In this document: positions 39,905 through 46,664 of the stretch, piece by piece
Layout: the number at the start of each line of letters is the position of its first letter
Position numbering within the stretch: the first letter of the stretch is position 1
Source of the DNA: Cyanobium sp. FGCU52
GTDB lineage: Bacteria; Cyanobacteriota; Cyanobacteriia; PCC-6307; Cyanobiaceae
Direction: 5' to 3'
Length of the DNA: 58,808 nt
Assembly (NCBI GenBank): GCA_024958715.1
Contig: JANWUS010000073.1
Span: forward strand, 1-58,808
Notes under the pieces: generated by a model
Seen by the model: only the letters and a program-made list of their open reading frames with translations
Databases searched by the model: none
What the model was told of the DNA's origin: nothing
Made by a program: the position numbers and the translations under genes

Positions 39905-41011
39905 TCAGCGCACCGCGGGTTGGTAGCGGTTGCTGGCGATCGGCGCCATCAGGAACAGCTTGGCCATCTCCAGGGCATTGGCGCCCCAGTAGGGAAGCTT
40001 GCGCAGCGCCTTGATCGGAGCCGGGGCGCTGGAGGCATCGGCCTCGCTGAGGGCCTGGTTGTTGTTCACCAGACGCTCGAGCCGATCCCAGAATTTCGGA
40101 TTCTCCACGTCGAGCACCACGGGGAAGACGCGGGCCGAGGTTTCATTGGTTTTGGCGATCACGTACTTATCGTATTCGCGCGCGTCGAGGGCGAGGGCCT
40201 CATAGAACTCCTTGCGGGCCACGTCGCGCACGTACATGGTGGCGAACACGGCCAGCAGGAAGAAGCGGCACCAGAGCTTGGCGGTGAAGCCGGTGACGGT
40301 GGAAGGCACGGCCTTCATCAGGGCGTCGAAGAAGTCGCCGTGGCGGTTCTCGTCCTGGCACCAGTTCTCGAAGAAGTTGAAGATCGGGAAGATCTTGCTG
40401 TCGGGATTCTTCTCGAGATGGCGGTAGATGGCGATGTAGCGCCAGTAGCCGATCTTCTCCGAGAGGTAGGTGGCATAGAAGATGTAGGCCGGCTTGAAGT
40501 AGGTGTAGGCCTTGTTGGCGGTGAGGAAGCCCAGATCCAGCTGCAGGCCGAAATCGCTCATCGCCTTGTTCAGAAAGCCCGCGTGGCGGGCCTCATCGCG
40601 GGCCATGTGGGCGAAGCACTCCGCCAGCAGGGGGTTCTTCTCCTTGATCCGGCGGCTGAGCTCCTTGTAGAGCAGGAAGCCGGAGAACTCCGAGGTGCAG
40701 CTCTGCTCGAGGAATTCCACAAACACCTTGCGGGTTTCGGGATCGAGCTTGTCGGCCGCGCCTTCAAACTCCTCGTTGCGAACGAAGTGGTGGCGGTTGT
40801 AATCCTTGCGGAACTCCTCGCAGATGGCTTCCAGCTCCGCCTCGTTCGGGCGGAGGTCCATCGCCGCCATGGCGTCGAAGTCGGTGGTGTAGAAGCGCGG
40901 CGTGAGGATCGTGTCCTTCACCGGTTCCTTGATGGCCGGGGCCTCAGGGGTGCCGATCGGCTGAACCGGAGCGGAGGCAGTGGCAGCGGCTGTGGCGGCG
41001 GGAGGCACCAT
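39905..41011 (-). CDS. acsF: Mg-protoporphyrin IX monomethyl ester (oxidative) cyclase
   Basis: Oxygen-dependent enzyme forming the fifth ring of chlorophyll. 368 aa with a diiron-carboxylate site: E108 in [10 protein letters not shown]140-x-x-H143 in RDEARHAGF, and E221-x-x-H224 in QDENRHGDF. The first 35 residues are a Pro/Ala leader not part of the core fold. Full length. It shows the organism is an oxygenic phototroph making chlorophyll aerobically. Confidence 0.97.
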
Positions 41012-41089
41012 CGTGCGGCAACGGACGCAATCCGGCCATCGTAGGGGTCACGGGCCCGAGGCCGGGCGGGATGTGAAGCGGCCGCAGCC

Positions 41090-41518
41090 TCAGTTGGGCC
41101 CGAGCCATTTCTGACCGTTGAGGCGCTGCACCAGCCTCGACACGATCAGCGCCAGGGTCATCTTGCGCTCATCGATCAGGAACGACTCCAGCAGGGTCGG
41201 TTCGGCCCCGGCTTCGGCGACCGCGATCGTCTTGGCGCTGCCGATGTCGGGCTCGGTGAAACAGAGCCAGAACCGGCGCTCGCCCGGCAGGGTTCCCTTC
41301 ACCATCCAGCAGTCGCTGCCCACCACGGGCATCGCACCCTGTTCGAACACAAGCGCCGGGGCGGGGCCGCCGTAGGCCTCGATCTCGCGGCAGAGGGCGG
41401 GGAGCAGCAGATCGGGCACGAAGGTGGCGAACGGCTGATCTTCCGGGGCGGGGGGCTTGGCCTTGGCGGGGGCTGCAGCCCCGGACGCCGGGGTGGGGAC
41501 GGAGGCGCTGTCGGTCAC
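41090..41518 (-). CDS. DUF2996 family protein
   Basis: 142 aa, GTG start at 41518 (the nearby ATG 41535 is out of frame). An Ala/Pro-rich start is followed by the conserved cyanobacterial domain: LLPALCREIEAYG, GSDCWMVKGTLPGERRFWLC, LLESFLIDERKMTLALIVSR and the terminal RLNGQKWLG. Function unknown. Same strand as acsF, which lies 78 bp downstream. Confidence 0.82.
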   Translation of the reverse strand: MTDSASVPTPASGAAAPAKAKPPAPEDQPFATFVPDLLLPALCREIEAYGGPAPALVFEQGAMPVVGSDCWMVKGTLPGERRFWLCFTEPDIGSAKTIAVAEAGAEPTLLESFLIDERKMTLALIVSRLVQRLNGQKWLGPN

Positions 41519-41567
41519 CGGATCGGTTCGCTCATGGCAGGGCGGAACTCTAAGCAGGTACGCCGGT

Positions 41568-42197
41568 TCACCAGTCGTCCTGCGCGCTTGCGCCCCAGTC
41601 CTCGTCGGCCGCCACCGCCAACGGTTCCGGAGTCCTCCGCTGCTGCGCTGCCTGCCGTGCGGATTCCGCCGGTGCCATGCCGACCCCTTCGCCCCGGCGC
41701 AGCACCCGGAACGGCACCGCCACCGTGGGGGCGGGCTCGCCAGGGGCCCTGGACGGACCCGCCCCCCAGGCCGGGGGCACCTCCACCGCCTGCGGGCGCC
41801 GGTCCCGCCTCGGCGGGGCCTGGGCCGCTTCCCGGCTGGGGAACTCGTCCCACACCTCGCCACTCCAGGCTGGTTCGGCGGCGGTGGATCCCTGCCGCCG
41901 GCGGACGCGCCGTCGCAGGCCCCCACCGGCTTCCCCGATCGCCAGGGCGGCGGCCCCGCCGCTGAGGGCGGCACCGGTGCCCGCCGCCGCCGCGATCCAG
42001 GCCCCGATCGGCAGGGACGGGCTGCTCCAGGTGAGCAGACGCAGGCTCACGGCGGGCCGCGGGTTCAGCGCTCCCACCAGCACCGCGGCCAGCAGGGGCG
42101 AGAGCAGGGGCAGCAGCAGCAGGCGGCGCAGGGGCAAGGGCGGTTGGGGAGGGAGGGTCCTCAGGGCGAGGATGACGGCGCCACGGGGCCGTGCCAA
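41568..42197 (-). CDS. Conserved membrane protein with acidic DDW C-terminus
   Basis: 209 aa. Two transmembrane helices near the N-terminus (about 24-45 and 57-85) are followed by a basic cytoplasmic stretch ([11 protein letters not shown]) and a disordered Pro/Arg region. It ends in [13 protein letters not shown], a patterned tail likely to be a docking motif. The start is uncertain: TTG 42197 lies 37 bp inside ubiX and has no obvious ribosome-binding site, but no later start precedes the first helix. Last gene of the rnb-ubiX unit. Confidence 0.55.
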
Positions 42198-42784
42198 CGG
42201 CGCAGGGAGCCGAGCTCCAGGCCGAGGGCATCGAAGACCCGGATCACCAGGAAATCCACCATCTCCTCAATCGTGGTGGGGCGGTGGTACCAGGCCGGCA
42301 CCGGCGGCGCGATCCGCGCCCCCGCCTCCGCCAGGGCGGTGAGGTTGCGCAGGTGCACCAGGTTCCAGGGCAGCTCCCGCGGCGCGATCACCAGCGGCCT
42401 GCCCTCCTTGAGGTGAACATCGGCCGCCCGCTCGATCAGGTCGAGGGCCACCCCCGATGCGATTCGGCCCACCGTGCCCATGCTGGCCGGCAGGATCACC
42501 ATCCCCCGCGTGCGGAAGCTGCCGCTGGCGATGCCGGCCGCCTGGTCGTTCCAGCGGTGGCAGCGCAGCCGTCCGCCCTGACAGCCGGTGCGTTCCCGCC
42601 AGAACCGTTCCTGGGCGTCGGGTTCGGAGGGCACCCGCAGGCCGAGCTCCGCCTGCCACACGCCGATCGCCCCGCGGCTGGTGACCATCTCCACGGGCAG
42701 ATCGGCTTCCAGCAGCAGCGCCACCGCCCGCTCGGCCAGGGGCTGGGCGGACGCGCCGGAGACCGCCAGCACCACCGGATCCAT
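42161..42784 (-). CDS. ubiX: Flavin prenyltransferase (UbiX family)
   Basis: 207 aa. Makes prenylated FMN, the cofactor of UbiD-type decarboxylases used in quinone synthesis. The N-terminal FMN-binding start is [17 protein letters not shown], and the family blocks [33 protein letters not shown] and [14 protein letters not shown] are present. It starts 3 bp after the stop of the RNase II-like gene and is followed by an overlapping membrane protein gene. Confidence 0.92.
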
Positions 42785-42787
42785 GGC

Positions 42788-45085
42788 TCAGTCCTCGCCG
42801 TCGTCGTCGAAGGCGCCGCCGGCATCCTGGCTGTCCTCGTCGTCGTGCTCCTCCTCCATCTCCGGCAGGTCGGGCTGGATCACCGCCAGATCGATCTGGT
42901 GACGGAGGGCATCCACCTTCTGGATCTCCACCTCCACCGCATCGCCCACCATGTAGGTGCGGCGGTACTTGCGCCCCACCAGCCGGTTCTGGCGGCTGCG
43001 GTACTCGTACCAGTCGTCCTTGAGGGAGCTCACGTGCACCAGCCCCTCCACCATCGAAGGGGGAACCTCCACGAAGAAGCCGTAGCTCTGCACGCCGCTG
43101 ATCACGCCGGGCAGGGTCTGGCCCACGAGCGGTTCGGCGTGGCGGGCCTGGGCCATCGCCAGGGTGTCGTCCTGCACCTCCTGCAGGAAACGGGTGCGGC
43201 CGTTGAGCCGCTGGGCCAGTCCCCGGGCCCGGGTCTGCTCGAACGGCGCCAGCACGGCCGGGGCGAACAGCGGCCAGTCCACGGCCCCGTGGCAGCTGTC
43301 GGAGGCCAGATCGACGCTGGTCTTGTGGCGCACGCTTGGCCGGTCCTTGCCTTCGGTGAGCAGGGTCACCAGCAGCTGCTGGTTCCAGAGGTCGGCGTAG
43401 TGGAGGTTGGGGCAGCACCAGGGGGCGAAGGCCTCGGGCTCACCGGCCAGGGCGTGCTCCCCGGGTTCGTCCGCCAGCTGGACGGGGCCCAGGCTGCCGC
43501 GCAGCTGCTGCTGCAGGGCGCGGCTCCGGTCGGTGGCGGCGAAGGCGGCCGCAAGCTCGGCGGCGCTGGCGTTGCCCTCGGGGCTCAGCTCCAGGGGGAT
43601 CTCAAGGGCCAGGGCCGCCTTGGCTGCCTCATTGATCTCCGCTGGATCGGCGGCGCTGTTGCGGGCGAACAGGGCCGGCAGGCCGAGGGCGGCCAGGTGG
43701 CGTCCCAGGGCCCGATGAGCCACCAGCACCGCCTCCCGCAGCAGCCCCACCGGATCCGCCGCCGGCAGTTCCACCAGCCAGCCCCGCAGGGCGGCGTCCG
43801 GCGAGGGGACCCGCAGGTCGCCGAGGCGCTCCAGGGCAGGCATCGGCAGGTCGAGGTCGATCGAGCCGGCGGCCAGGCGGCGCTGCCGCAGCAGGCTGGC
43901 CAGGGCCACCAGCTGCTCCAGCAGCGGGAGGTGATCCTTCAGCGGCTTGAGGGCGGCGGGCACGGTGCGGGCCTTCGGCTTGCGCTCGCCCAGGGCCGTG
44001 AGGGCGGCGGCGTCCACGGCGGCCGTGGGCCGGATCCTGCTGAGGGCGAAGCGGTAATGCTCCAGCTCTCCGGCCGCGTTCAGCTCAAGGGCCACCGACA
44101 CGGCCTCCTGCTCCTCACCCACCCGGAACTGGGAGGCCTTCGCCAGTGCAGGGGTGAGCAGGGGCAGCCAGCGGTTCCCGAGGCAGAGGGCCTCGGCCTG
44201 ATCGCGCATCCAGCTGTCGAGGCTGGTGCCGGCGCCCACCCGTTCGGCCACGGCGGGGGCGTGCAGCCAAAGGCGCCAGCCCCCTTCGCGTTCCTCCAGG
44301 GAGAGGGCGGGCAGACCCGGCGCTTCGGCAGCGTTCCAGCCGGTGGGGAGCAGGCTCACCAGGGCCGTGAGGTCCTGGCGCTCGCTGGCGGGAGAGCGCA
44401 GGGTGGCCCGGGGAGCGGCGGAGCGCTCATGGAGGTGATGCTTGGTGAGCAGAAGGTCAAGGTCGGCCTCCTCACCGCCGGAGACCGGCAGGCTGCGGGC
44501 GACGTGGCCCTGGGCCGGGAACTGGCCCACGGGGAAGCGGTCGATGCGCACGTCCACCACCGCCGGCTCGGCTGGCTCGAGGTGGGAGGCGTCACCGTCG
44601 GGAAGATCGATGGCGGTGAGCAGCCTGTCGTCGAGGGGCACGGCCACGAGCCGGCTCTCCTGGCGCTCCACCTGGGCCAGCAGGCTTGTGGTGTTGCGTT
44701 CAAGCACGCACTGAACGCCGCCCTCCGGTGAGCGGCGCCGGCCACCCTCGCGGGTGACGCGCACCAGCACACGGTCGCCGTTCCAGGCATGGTTCAGCTG
44801 ATGATCGCGGATGTAGATGTCCTCGCCGCCGTCTTCGCGCAGGGCGAAGCAGAAGCCCTTGCTGGAGCAGCGCAGGCGGGCGGTCACCAGTTCCGGCACC
44901 TCACGCCGCAGCAGACCGTCGGGCGTCTCCTGCAGGAGATCCAGGCGGATCAGGGCGTCGATGCCGATCCGCAGCTGCTGCTTCTCCTGCTCCTCCGCCA
45001 GGCCGAGGGCCTTCTCCAGCTTCACCAGGGGCAGGGTTTCGCTGGTGGACAGCTGGTCGAGCAGGTCGGCGACCGTGAACTTCAT
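42788..45085 (-). CDS. RNase II/R-family (RNB-S1) protein, catalytic residues apparently lost
   Basis: 765 aa. Order: N-terminal winged-helix/cold-shock part (RCSSKGFCFALREDGGEDIY, NGDRVLVRVTREG), an RNB-like core, then a C-terminal S1 domain (GVISGVQSYGFFVEVP, EGLVHVSSL) and an acidic tail. The RNB core lacks the DxxxxxDxDD acidic cluster: before GGWRLWLHAPAV I see only NAAEAPGLPALSLEE. HIADV is HAPAV and the SPIRRYxDL motif is CPNLHYADL. It resembles the cyanobacterial Zam group. An RNA-binding rather than hydrolytic role is likely. First gene of a unit with ubiX. Confidence 0.8.
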   Translation of the reverse strand: MKFTVADLLDQLSTSETLPLVKLEKALGLAEEQEKQQLRIGIDALIRLDLLQETPDGLLRREVPELVTARLRCSSKGFCFALREDGGEDIYIRDHQLNHAWNGDRVLVRVTREGGRRRSPEGGVQCVLERNTTSLLAQVERQESRLVAVPLDDRLLTAIDLPDGDASHLEPAEPAVVDVRIDRFPVGQFPAQGHVARSLPVSGGEEADLDLLLTKHHLHERSAAPRATLRSPASERQDLTALVSLLPTGWNAAEAPGLPALSLEEREGGWRLWLHAPAVAERVGAGTSLDSWMRDQAEALCLGNRWLPLLTPALAKASQFRVGEEQEAVSVALELNAAGELEHYRFALSRIRPTAAVDAAALTALGERKPKARTVPAALKPLKDHLPLLEQLVALASLLRQRRLAAGSIDLDLPMPALERLGDLRVPSPDAALRGWLVELPAADPVGLLREAVLVAHRALGRHLAALGLPALFARNSAADPAEINEAAKAALALEIPLELSPEGNASAAELAAAFAATDRSRALQQQLRGSLGPVQLADEPGEHALAGEPEAFAPWCCPNLHYADLWNQQLLVTLLTEGKDRPSVRHKTSVDLASDSCHGAVDWPLFAPAVLAPFEQTRARGLAQRLNGRTRFLQEVQDDTLAMAQARHAEPLVGQTLPGVISGVQSYGFFVEVPPSMVEGLVHVSSLKDDWYEYRSRQNRLVGRKYRRTYMVGDAVEVEIQKVDALRHQIDLAVIQPDLPEMEEEHDDEDSQDAGGAFDDDGED

Positions 45086-45313
45086 CGGCGGGACGGGACG
45101 GGGGATGGGTGGTGGCGGCACCACCGGGCCAGCTCCTCAGGGACGGAGTGGCGAAGCGACAGCCTGGTGGACCGTGGGGTGGACCGACGGGCGGTCCGGA
45201 GACGGGAGGCACCGGGTGGCCGGACATCGCGGAACAGTGGGAAACCGCGCTGGGCGACCGGGTAGGGCCCGCGGTGGGCGACCGCCGGCCTGAGGAGTGG
45301 TGTTGGGGTGACT
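45086..45313. other. Intergenic region upstream of the RNase II-like gene
   Basis: 228 bp, very GC-rich, with imperfect repeats of GGTGGACCG and GGGCGACCG on the plus strand. No gene seen. It separates the GDT1 operon's 3' end from the RNase II-like gene and should carry the latter's promoter. Confidence 0.4.
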
Positions 45314-45661
45314 CTAGGGAGCGGTGGGAGCCTCCTTCTCCTCCTCGCCCGCAGGGGCCCCCTCGACCCTGGCTTCCGCCAGTTCCTGCCCCTCGCGCGA
45401 GCGCAGGATCAGCCGGGCTCCGATGATCAGGAATCCCACGGAGGCCGCCAGCTGGAGGGCATCGGTGGGGATCACGCTCGAGAGGGAGCCCCCGGCGGCC
45501 GCCCCCACCAGGCTCGCGAGCACCAGGGCCACCGCACTGCCGGCGAAGACCGCGCCCGGTCGGGTGGAGGTGCCGCTGATGCTCACGATCGCGAGCTGGG
45601 TCTTGTCGCCCAGTTCCGCCAGGAACACCGTGGCGAAGGTGGAGGCCAGCAGGGCGAGCAT
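45314..45661 (-). CDS. Half-size GDT1/UPF0016 cation transporter, copy 2
   Basis: 115 aa, three transmembrane helices and an acidic C-terminal tail. The family signature AELGDKTQLA lies at about 15-24. Full-length GDT1/TMEM165 proteins have two such motifs in six helices; here each half is a separate gene and the other half lies just upstream (45692). They presumably pair. Cyanobacterial and plastid relatives export Mn2+ from the cytoplasm into the thylakoid lumen or periplasm. Confidence 0.88.
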   Translation of the reverse strand: MLALLASTFATVFLAELGDKTQLAIVSISGTSTRPGAVFAGSAVALVLASLVGAAAGGSLSSVIPTDALQLAASVGFLIIGARLILRSREGQELAEARVEGAPAGEEEKEAPTAP

Positions 45662-45691
45662 CGGTGCGTAAGGAGGGGGAAGCAGGGGGCG

Positions 45692-46078
45692 TCAGACGCC
45701 GGCGGGAAGGGGGGCCAGGTGCACCACGGCCTGGCGGCCGAGCCACAGGCCGAGGGCCACCATCAGCACCCCGGCGGCGCGCTCCAGCTGGCGGGGTTCC
45801 ATCACGGTGGACAGCCAGCGGCCCAGCACCACCCCCACCAGGCTGGAGCTGATCAGGGCCAGGGAGGCACCGAAGAACACCACCACCGGCCGTCCCGATT
45901 CGGCCGAGAGCAGCAGGGCGGCGAGCTGGGTCTTGTCGCCCAGTTCCGCCAGGAACACCGTGGTGGCGGTGGAGAGGAACACCGCCCCCCAGCTGCCGGC
46001 GCGGCCGACCTCCTGAGCGCCGGCCGGTGCGTCGGCGGTTGCGTCGGCGTGGGTGTCGTTCTGGGGCGACTGACTCAT
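45692..46078 (-). CDS. Half-size GDT1/UPF0016 cation transporter, copy 1
   Basis: 128 aa. A polar 28-residue start is followed by three transmembrane helices with AELGDKTQLAALLLSAESG in the first. It is the partner of the half-protein at 45314, 30 bp downstream. Its ATG overlaps the stop of the YkgJ gene (ATGA). A role in Mn2+ (possibly Ca2+) export is by family. Confidence 0.88.
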   Translation of the reverse strand: MSQSPQNDTHADATADAPAGAQEVGRAGSWGAVFLSTATTVFLAELGDKTQLAALLLSAESGRPVVVFFGASLALISSSLVGVVLGRWLSTVMEPRQLERAAGVLMVALGLWLGRQAVVHLAPLPAGV

Positions 46079-46425
46079 GGCTGGCGGCGAACCGCGCGAC
46101 GGAAGCGCCGCATCACCCTGCCACGCCCTCCGTCCTCAGCGCGGATCTGCTGGGTGCAGCAGGCGATCGCCAGGGCATCGGCATCGTCGCCTTCAGCCCC
46201 GAACAGCCGCATCAGGTTCTCCACCCGGCAGAAGTCGGGGCGCTGCTCATAGATGCGGCAGCGACGGCCGCCGGTGTCGAAGTGCACGCACCAGCCGTCG
46301 GGGCCCACCATCGAGAGATAGAGGAGGCGCTGCTCCTCGCTGAGGACCTCCAGCGCTTCGCCGCGCAGGGCGGGATCGAGGCGGCAGCAGGCCCCGCAGC
46401 CGCTGATGCATCGCCAGTGCTTCAT
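46075..46425 (-). CDS. YkgJ family cysteine-cluster protein
   Basis: 116 aa from ATG 46425. Cysteines C6, C10, C13 and C14 (CISGCGACC) and later C-x-[18 protein letters not shown] and ACC form the cysteine cluster of this family, thought to bind zinc or an iron-sulfur centre. Biochemical role unknown. It is the first gene of an operon with the two GDT1 halves and is divergent from psb30. Confidence 0.85.
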
Positions 46426-46556
46426 CCCTCCATTCAGACACAGGAACAGCCGGGACAGCTGTGACAAGCCGTCACAACGGCGCCCGCCCGGCACCTGCGC
46501 CGGTGCGGCGGGCACCTAAGGTCGCTCCTGCTTCCCCTCGCGAGAGCCACCGAACC

Positions 46557-46664
46557 ATGGGCATCGACTTCCATCTGATCGCCAACTTCGGAGCCCTGGC
46601 CCTGATCACCCTGGCCGGCCCGGCCGTGATCTTCATCCTCTTCTACCGCCGCGGCGCCCTCTGA
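46557..46664 (+). CDS. psb30: Photosystem II protein Psb30 (Ycf12)
   Basis: A 35-aa single-helix subunit of the photosystem II core. The sequence [20 protein letters not shown] followed by [12 protein letters not shown] is characteristic. The ATG is 46557. A CCTAAGGTCG element at 46515-46524 is a candidate -10. It is transcribed away from the YkgJ-GDT1 operon across a 131-bp shared upstream region. Confidence 0.95.

What the first reader, a model, noticed from the sequence alone, without database searches (positions are those of the whole stretch)
42788..45085. RNase II/R-family protein with its catalytic residues replaced
Seen: normal flanking cold-shock-like and S1 domains, but in the RNB core the DxxxxxDxDD cluster is absent (NAAEAPGLPALSLEE in its place), HIADV has become HAPAV, and SPIRRYxDL has become CPNLHYADL. 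Known: these Asp residues bind Mg2+ and the Arg contacts the scissile phosphate in E. coli RNase II. Inferred: a pseudo-exonuclease that has kept RNA binding, possibly a protector or chaperone of RNA, in a transcript with ubiX. It probably belongs to the Zam-like group.
Basis: partly seen in the sequence, partly recalled or inferred. Interest (0 to 1): 0.55.

Follow-up and report, generated by a model that had tools for sequence, protein, structure and literature searches.

The report
Picocyanobacterial Zam, a dead RNase homologue
The gene encodes Zam, a cyanobacterial protein built like an RNA-degrading enzyme whose cutting site is gone; the loss was already known, but in this bacterium's family the old cutting site holds a new, conserved set of amino acids that may point to a different job.

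Summary
Observation confirmed. Window 42788-45085, minus strand, encodes 765 aa: cold-shock domains, an RNB core without its catalytic Asp cluster, and S1. It is Zam, a published cyanobacterial RNase II/R-family pseudo-exonuclease with two redox-active CSD1 cysteines. The genome has a second RNB gene that is intact.

Not found in print by my searches: (1) Erosion is graded. Of 238 distinct Zams none keeps four acidic residues, 13 keep the three Mg-binding Asp, 35 keep D209+D210; the second Asp (D207) is Asp in none (Glu in 2 doubtful rows). (2) The window's family (f1, taken to be the picocyanobacteria) has gone furthest: R500 kept in 1 of 66, against 168 of 172 other Zams; the HIAD Asp in 0 of 66 against 170 of 172. 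(3) The old site is not random there: W-x5-P-x-L...W-x-H-x-P-x3-ER in 60 of 66, 0 of 172 elsewhere (motif drawn from f1 after looking). (4) A third CSD1 cysteine, C126: 66 of 66 against 0 of 172.

Most likely a redox-gated RNA/RNase E-binding regulator acting through CSD1 and S1, not a nuclease. A report that Anabaena Alr1240 (assigned to Zam) degrades RNA conflicts with this for Zam in general.

The parts
42788..45085 (-). zam CDS, 765 aa, RNase II/R-family pseudo-exonuclease
44696..44887 (-). CSD1 (residues 67-130, boundaries approximate); L12 loop RCSSKGFCF with RNA-contact residues R72, K76, F78, F80
   Evidence: the L12 contact residues are described in PMC9145284
44849..44869 (-). redox cysteine pair C73 and C79 (codons and what lies between)
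   Evidence: C73 in 235 of 238, C79 in 236 of 238 distinct Zams; function in PMC9145284
44708..44710 (-). C126, third CSD1 cysteine, seen only in the window's family
   Evidence: 66 of 66 in family f1, 0 of 172 in other Zams
44411..44695 (-). second cold-shock domain region (residues 131-225; boundary approximate)
   Evidence: inferred from position between CSD1 and RNB; the Pfam CSD2 model itself hits residues 88-129
43355..44380 (-). RNB domain (residues 236-577), catalytic residues gone
44294..44353 (-). former Mg-binding Asp loop (residues 245-264): LLPTGWNAAEAPGLPALSLE in place of the DxxxxxDxDD segment
44240..44263 (-). HAPAVAER (residues 275-282) in place of HIADVxHY; H275 invariant, E281-R282 characteristic of family f1
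43388..43414 (-). CPNLHYADL (residues 558-566) in place of SPIRRYxDL; H562 at the Arg500 position
42881..43129 (-). S1 domain (residues 653-735)
42791..42877 (-). acidic C-terminal tail (residues 737-765)
   Evidence: net negative in 171 of 172 non-f1 Zams and in 57 of the 61 f1 Zams with a tail of 8 or more residues; 5 f1 Zams have no tail
42161..42784 (-). ubiX (flavin prenyltransferase-like flavoprotein), starts 3 nt after the zam stop
   Evidence: PF02441 E 9e-35; junction sequence
41568..42197 (-). small ORF after ubiX with a weak LapA-domain match; start codon uncertain, the listed ORF overlaps ubiX
   Evidence: PF06305 19.2 bits, below its cut-off of 28

Best explanation
The gene is the orthologue of zam in the window's family (taken to be the picocyanobacteria). 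The protein is a catalytically dead RNase R-type protein. It keeps the RNA-facing CSD1 loop and the S1 domain and acts as a redox-sensing regulator of RNA turnover: under oxidising conditions the CSD1 cysteines form a disulfide that changes its binding to RNA and/or RNase E. Shown here: orthology, loss of every catalytic signature tested, and conservation of CSD1/S1 and of the redox cysteines. From the literature: redox activity of Zam and need of C73/C79, pigment and photosystem phenotypes of the deletion (PCC 7002), and RNase E binding and stimulation by an Anabaena RNB protein assigned to Zam. Inferred: that this form works the same way, and that its changed RNB core now serves as scaffold or as protein/ligand-binding surface. 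My split: Zam orthologue 0.97; no hydrolytic exonuclease activity 0.93; redox-gated RNA/RNase E regulator 0.5.
For: Pfam domains. TIGR02063 RNase R score 178.9 against a cut-off of 597.85. Intact paralogue. 238 distinct Zams: 0 with four acidic residues; f1: HIAD Asp 0 of 66, R500 1 of 66, DxxxxxDxDD 0 of 66. Mean column entropy over 34 f1 genera: CSD1 0.62, S1 0.89, RNB 1.85 bits. C73/C79 in 235 and 236 of 238. L12 contact residues, W101 and R116-118 kept. Zam clade 100%. Model whose best Foldseek matches are RNase R, then RNase II and Rrp44/Dis3L2. Zam biology from PMC9145284, parts 1-4 of 6 of the text read.
Against: A review (PMC10989914, passages) says that Anabaena Alr1240, which Thomas et al. 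appear to mean by the RNase E partner they call Zam, degrades unstructured RNA; the primary paper is not held. Purified PCC 7002 Zam showed no RNA binding either (aggregation-prone, data not shown in that paper). I found no experiment on a Zam of the window's family. Two f1 Zams have Ser at C73 and one at C79, and the f18 Zams read lack both cysteines, so the redox pair is not universal. The model is mediocre (mean pLDDT 62.3) and CSD1 is among its weakest parts, so neither the pocket nor the disulfide geometry was examined.
Confidence: 0.62

Rival explanations
1. The RNB core of the window family's Zam has gained a new specific function (small-molecule, RNA-end or protein-binding pocket) at the former active site, and this, not CSD1/S1, is the main activity.
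For: Positions fixed in f1 genera and rare in 87 other genera: 20 in all, 16 in RNB, 8 of these in the two former active-site segments (60 of 375 RNB positions; hypergeometric p 0.0012). Motif in 60 of 66 f1 and 0 of 172 other Zams. P256, H275, E281, R282, N568 and Q569 invariant in 34 of 34 f1 genera.
Against: The segments and the motif were chosen after looking. Three of the 8 positions (W250, P256, L258) lie in columns that are gaps in 53-76% of the other genera; without such columns 5 of 11 remain in the segments and p is 0.015. Family-fixed residues may be structural, packing the site after loss of the metal. CSD1 and S1 stay far more conserved than RNB.
Confidence: 0.18
2. The RNB core is merely decaying: selection on catalysis was relaxed and only CSD1 and S1 matter.
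For: RNB is the least conserved large domain across the 125 Zams (25-residue blocks at about 1.9-2.75 bits, against 0.6-1.2 in the core of CSD1 and S1). Family f44 has shortened RNB cores.
Against: The 66 f1 proteins are 739-845 aa long, so no large deletion is seen there. H275 is invariant in 238 of 238, and G407, H463 and W604 nearly so. R500 and the HIAD Asp are kept in 168 and 170 of 172 non-f1 Zams although most of these have lost the metal site.
Confidence: 0.16
3. Zam, this one included, is still an exonuclease that uses a non-canonical site.
For: Reported activity of Anabaena Alr1240. Thirteen of 238 Zams keep the three Mg-binding Asp, and 4 of 388 genomes hold a Zam that reaches the RNase R cut-off (one alone, three with neighbouring matches in the frame).
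Against: The window protein keeps none of the four Asp, the R500 Arg or the HIAD Asp. The second Asp is Asp in none of 238. Thomas et al. report no nuclease activity for PCC 7002 Zam, with a caution about aggregation.
Confidence: 0.04

Closest known systems
Cyanobacterial Zam (Synechocystis Sll1910; PCC 7002 A1543)
   Same: Domain order, degenerate RNB site, CSD1 cysteines C73/C79 at the same residue numbers, RNA-contact loop, a Trp and an Arg repeat in CSD1 (PMC9145284).
   Different: Lacks R500 and the HIAD Asp that 168 and 170 of 172 non-f1 Zams keep; has a family-specific motif at the former site and a third CSD1 cysteine. The PCC 7002 and PCC 6803 sequences themselves were not fetched.
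RNase R (E. coli, B. subtilis; TIGR02063)
   Same: Fold and domain order; best solved relatives by sequence and by model.
   Different: Catalytic motifs absent; score 178.9 against a cut-off of 597.85.
Cyanobacterial Rnb (RNase II; own genome G000:C24, P0002)
   Same: RNB family, same genome.
   Different: Intact catalytic motifs; cyanobacterial Rnb rows form a separate clade (P0002 itself not in that tree).
Fungal Ssd1/Sts5 pseudonucleases (7am1)
   Same: Dead RNase II-family proteins whose cold-shock domains stay conserved while the RNB core diverges, with repeated loss of the site in related lineages (PMC8097288 passages; PMC8934651 abstract). Foldseek finds 7am1 at rank 34.
   Different: They descend from eukaryotic Dis3L2, are regulated by the kinase Cbk1, and in Ssd1 the RNA path is blocked by inserted sequence; none of this was looked for here.

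Membership tests
Zam | CSD1-CSD2-RNB-S1 architecture in a cyanobacterium | tested here: met
   orthologues in cyanobacterial genomes. CSD2 proper is inferred from position
Zam | two invariant CSD1 cysteines (C73, C79) | tested here: met
   RCSSKGFCF at residues 72-80
Zam | degenerate RNB active site | tested here: met
Zam | own clade apart from Rnb | tested here: met
   74 Zam rows against 5 Rnb and 6 outgroup rows, SH-aLRT 100, quick tree with some long branches
Zam | reciprocal best hit with PCC 7002 Zam | not tested
   PCC 7002 sequence not fetched
Zam | redox response and need of the cysteines in vivo | not testable with these tools
   published for PCC 7002
RNase R (active exonuclease) | DxxxxxDxDD plus SPIRRYxDL catalytic motifs | tested here: not met
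RNase R (active exonuclease) | score over the TIGR02063 cut-off | tested here: not met
   178.9 against 597.85 bits
RNase II-family pseudonuclease (works like Ssd1) | Mg-binding Asp lost while cold-shock domains stay conserved | tested here: met
   (CSD1 conserved; the CSD2 region much less, 1.74 bits)
RNase II-family pseudonuclease (works like Ssd1) | binds RNA without degrading it | not testable with these tools
   needs purified protein

The most novel reading that the evidence does not exclude
Zam is a bacterial counterpart of the fungal Ssd1 story. A non-nuclease function in CSD1/S1 arose while the enzyme still had most of its site; the site then eroded stepwise and more than once. In picocyanobacteria the emptied nuclease pocket was rebuilt into a new conserved site (W250, P256, W273, E281, R282, N568) together with a three-cysteine redox centre (C73, C79, C126), giving a new functional form of the protein. 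Some other lineages may still hold weakly active Zams.
Probability: 0.3. Interest if true: 0.58.

Novelty: new variant of a known kind. Interest (0 to 1): 0.4.

Why it matters
Zam is reported to link redox state to RNA turnover and light harvesting, yet how it works is open. The window's family shows which parts can be lost (all catalytic residues tested) and which are fixed (CSD1, S1, a new residue set at the old site, a third cysteine), so tests can be aimed at single residues. The graded series offers natural intermediates for asking when nuclease activity was lost, and it sharpens a conflict in print: an Anabaena protein assigned to Zam is said to degrade RNA.

Tried and rejected
Chance or frameshift artefact: rejected; open frame, and the changes recur in the 66 f1 rows. 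Viral relatives: one viral-contig scan with the single protein found none; such a scan reaches close relatives only. Four acidic residues at other positions: none seen by sequence. A loose search for the spaced acidic pattern between residues 216 and 335 hit 4 of 238 Zams, none in f1; the three whose place I can read (L103, L315, L307) lie just after the D209-D210 pair, not at the site, and the fourth (L091) I did not place. Operon logic with ubiX as the key to function: weakened by five genomes with zam and no ubiX. Promoter/terminator scan of 41000-46600: nothing found, uninformative. Identity of Anabaena Alr1240: the PCC 7120 record was not among the 80 loci kept of 579. Transcript alr1240-alr1241-alr1242 and the zam-ubiX-ORF order in one Nostocaceae-like genome fit Zam; but in 1 of 5 genomes checked the genes right after rnb are also on its strand, so this is no proof. 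Searches for RNase II mutant data returned no paper. AF2 model: pLDDT 62.3, so no pocket geometry was read from it; the second job was not used, because only window and the search for related loci/search_dna sequences are allowed and these gave little diversity.

Controls, drops and limits: the 238 Zams are not an even sample, so shares are not population estimates: 78 rows come from the named scan seeded with a Nostocaceae-like Zam and 29 from the best RNase R scorers of 388 genomes, others were best hits or hand-picked for spread. Rows contained in others were dropped (139 loci to 125). The loci read are not in the 238; they add f18 proteins without both cysteines and f44 proteins with short cores. 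In f1 the aligner left gaps at D209/D210 (69 rows in all), so these were read by the flanking anchor: columns 256, 258 and 259 hold P in 66, L in 64 and P in 57 of 66. The catalytic columns were not taken out of the tree on which changes were counted.

Full report
WHAT IS THERE. The stretch 42788-45085 encodes a 765-residue protein on the minus strand. Pfam finds a first cold-shock domain, the RNB core and an S1 domain. D209-D210 read Leu258-Pro259; the Asp of HIAD is Ala278; the Arg of SPIRRY at the R500 position is His562. Numbers such as D201 and R500 are those of E. coli RNase II. The roles of the Asp residues (first, third and fourth coordinate Mg2+; the second contacts the 3'-OH) are from PMC8097288 (passages). 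That R500 is the second Arg of the motif is recalled.

SECOND ENZYME. The RNB family search of the own genome finds one other gene: 688 aa from the listed start, with TIDDDDTADIDD, HIADP and SPIRRYGDL intact. I take two small ORFs beside it for ribosomal proteins S18 and L33 from reading the sequence; this was not searched.

IDENTITY. The protein is Zam. Thomas et al. 2022 (PMC9145284; parts 1-4 of 6 of the text read, and passages; figures not seen) describe Zam as an RNB-family clade with a degenerate active site. They report two invariant redox-active CSD1 cysteines needed in vivo, slower growth, less phycocyanin and a changed PSI:PSII ratio in the deletion, and no nuclease or RNA-binding activity in an aggregation-prone preparation (data not shown there). 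The sequence features tested are met: C73 and C79 at the same numbers, R72/K76/F78/F80, W101 and the Arg repeat at 116-118, and a Zam clade with full support (quick tree, SH-aLRT only, several long branches).

HOW WIDE IS THE LOSS. In a draw of 194 genomes of the phylum 92 match the protein, 89 of them in the window's class; the other three matches are weak and cover RNB parts only. In a draw of 151 genomes of the window's family (f1), 135 match, and 94 of the 95 best-quality ones; one of the 135 matches is marginal (E 9e-4). I take f1 to be the picocyanobacteria because two of its contigs, 1,751,080 and 1,709,204 bases, have the lengths of Prochlorococcus SS120 and MIT 9312 as I recall them. 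I aligned 238 distinct Zams with 9 Rnb and 6 outgroup proteins. None has four acidic residues at the four positions; 14 have three, 82 two, 96 one and 46 none (D201 in f1 depends on the alignment). Thirteen keep D201, D209 and D210 (families f5, f8, f23) and 35 keep D209 and D210. The second Asp is Asp in none; two f19 rows have Glu there in a doubtful alignment. Four of 388 genomes hold a Zam that reaches the RNase R cut-off, one of them alone and three with neighbouring matches. On the quick tree the D209 state needs at least 4 changes, the Mg triad 3 and R500 3. So erosion looks stepwise and repeated, but deep branches are unresolved, the trait columns were left in, and such counts cannot tell gain from loss.

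THE WINDOW FAMILY'S FORM IS DIFFERENT. R500 is kept by 168 of 172 non-f1 Zams and by 1 of 66 f1 Zams (49 have His). The HIAD Asp is kept by 170 of 172 (2 have Glu) against 0 of 66; the HIAD His by 238 of 238. The lost site has not drifted freely. A motif W-x5-P-x-L ... W-x-H-x-P-x3-ER is in 60 of 66 f1 Zams and 0 of 172 others (44 of 66 in a stricter form; the looser pattern allows a few substitutes at the L, W and P positions); it was written after seeing f1. Over 34 f1 genera P256, H275, E281, R282, N568 and Q569 are invariant. Twenty positions are fixed in f1 and rare elsewhere; 16 lie in RNB and 8 of these in the two former active-site segments (p 0.0012). The segments were chosen after looking, and three of the 8 lie in columns gapped in most other Zams; without such columns it is 5 of 11, p 0.015. 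A plainer test, positions of at least 90% conservation in f1, gave 13 of 56 in slightly narrower segments against 33 of 319 elsewhere in RNB, Fisher p 0.013 (from the counts). C126, in CSD1, is Cys in 66 of 66 f1 Zams and 0 of 172 others. It is kept in the three f1 proteins that have lost C73 (L121, L131) or C79 (L125), so the redox pair may be able to change partners; this is inference.

SURROUNDINGS. ubiX starts 3 nt after zam and follows zam in 55 of 76 loci with enough sequence (31 of 34 in f1, 12 of 12 in f7, 0 of 5 in f6, 0 of 4 in f13). Five of five genomes searched of the Prochlorococcus-like genus g2 show no ubiX yet have zam. Upstream lie two half-size GDT1 cation antiporter genes and recJ, downstream a LapA-like ORF, DUF2996 and a rubrerythrin-domain gene that I take for acsF by recall.

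STRUCTURE. The AlphaFold2 model has mean pLDDT 62.3. Foldseek's best matches are RNase R, RNase II and Rrp44/Dis3L2; yeast Ssd1, a solved pseudonuclease, is at rank 34. TM-scores by query of the RNB-family hits are low (0.32-0.38), so this confirms the fold only. A sequence search of the PDB showed no Zam structure; the best match was RNase R at E 1.6e-34.

MECHANISM. Shown: none of the catalytic residues tested is left; CSD1 and S1 are the most conserved parts (0.62 and 0.89 bits against 1.85 for RNB). From the literature: redox need of the cysteines. Inferred: a redox-gated RNA or RNase E partner. The RNase E link rests on an Anabaena protein. A review says that Alr1240 forms a complex with RNase E, stimulates it, and degrades unstructured RNA (PMC10989914 passages); Thomas et al. 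call the RNase E partner Zam. The Nostocaceae-type Zams printed mostly have E-N at D209-D210 and keep R500. So if Alr1240 is Zam, either that form is weakly active or the preparation held another nuclease. I could not settle this.

NOVELTY. Pseudonuclease status of Zam is in print. My searches (zam with cyanobacteria and acetazolamide; Zam with RNase and cyanobacteri, 20 of 419 listed; locus tags) and passages of the Zam paper (Prochlorococcus and picocyanobacteri occur 0 times in its main text) showed no description of the three-Asp Zams, the f1 motif or C126. The library holds open papers only; figures and supplements were not seen. The nearest precedent that I found is the repeated loss in fungal Dis3L2/Ssd1.

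Noticed in passing
L211:6752-9037 (G109), L212:6390-8369 (G135): A third RNB gene, at another place than zam and rnb in these genomes, with a catalytic Asp motif and a C-terminal double-stranded-RNA-binding motif (PF00773 plus PF00035).
   Followed up: partly
L080, L330, L342 (family f18): Zams of this family lack both CSD1 cysteines (Phe/Tyr and Phe/Trp-type residues stand in their places); L080 and L342 are also short. The redox switch is not universal.
   Followed up: partly
G399, G407, G371, G333, G596: In 5 of 19 genomes, most picked for low RNase R scores, no Zam was found (four show only an RNB-core match, one nothing), against the published statement that every cyanobacterium searched has Zam; some of these genomes are fragmented.
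   Followed up: partly
L336-L341 (family f44): Zams with a shortened RNB core: matches run to about model position 370 and resume at about 447.
   Followed up: no
L209, L210: In two small Prochlorococcus-like genomes Rnb lies in an open frame of only 398 and 433 aa yet keeps its Asp motif (second Asp as Glu) and SPLRRY.
   Followed up: partly
window 45314-45661 and 45692-46078, minus strand: Two adjacent half-size GDT1 cation antiporter genes just upstream of zam; a GDT1 gene lies upstream in 9 of 34 f1 loci at the search threshold used.
   Followed up: partly
L090:13158-14382 (G129): A second, partial zam-ubiX pair (S1-containing fragment plus ubiX-like ORF) starts about 1.8 kb after the main pair.
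   Followed up: no
Anabaena PCC 7120 alr1240-alr1241-alr1242 (PMC10287535): A nitrogen-regulated antisense transcript is listed opposite this unit, which may be zam-ubiX-ORF (passage).
   Followed up: no
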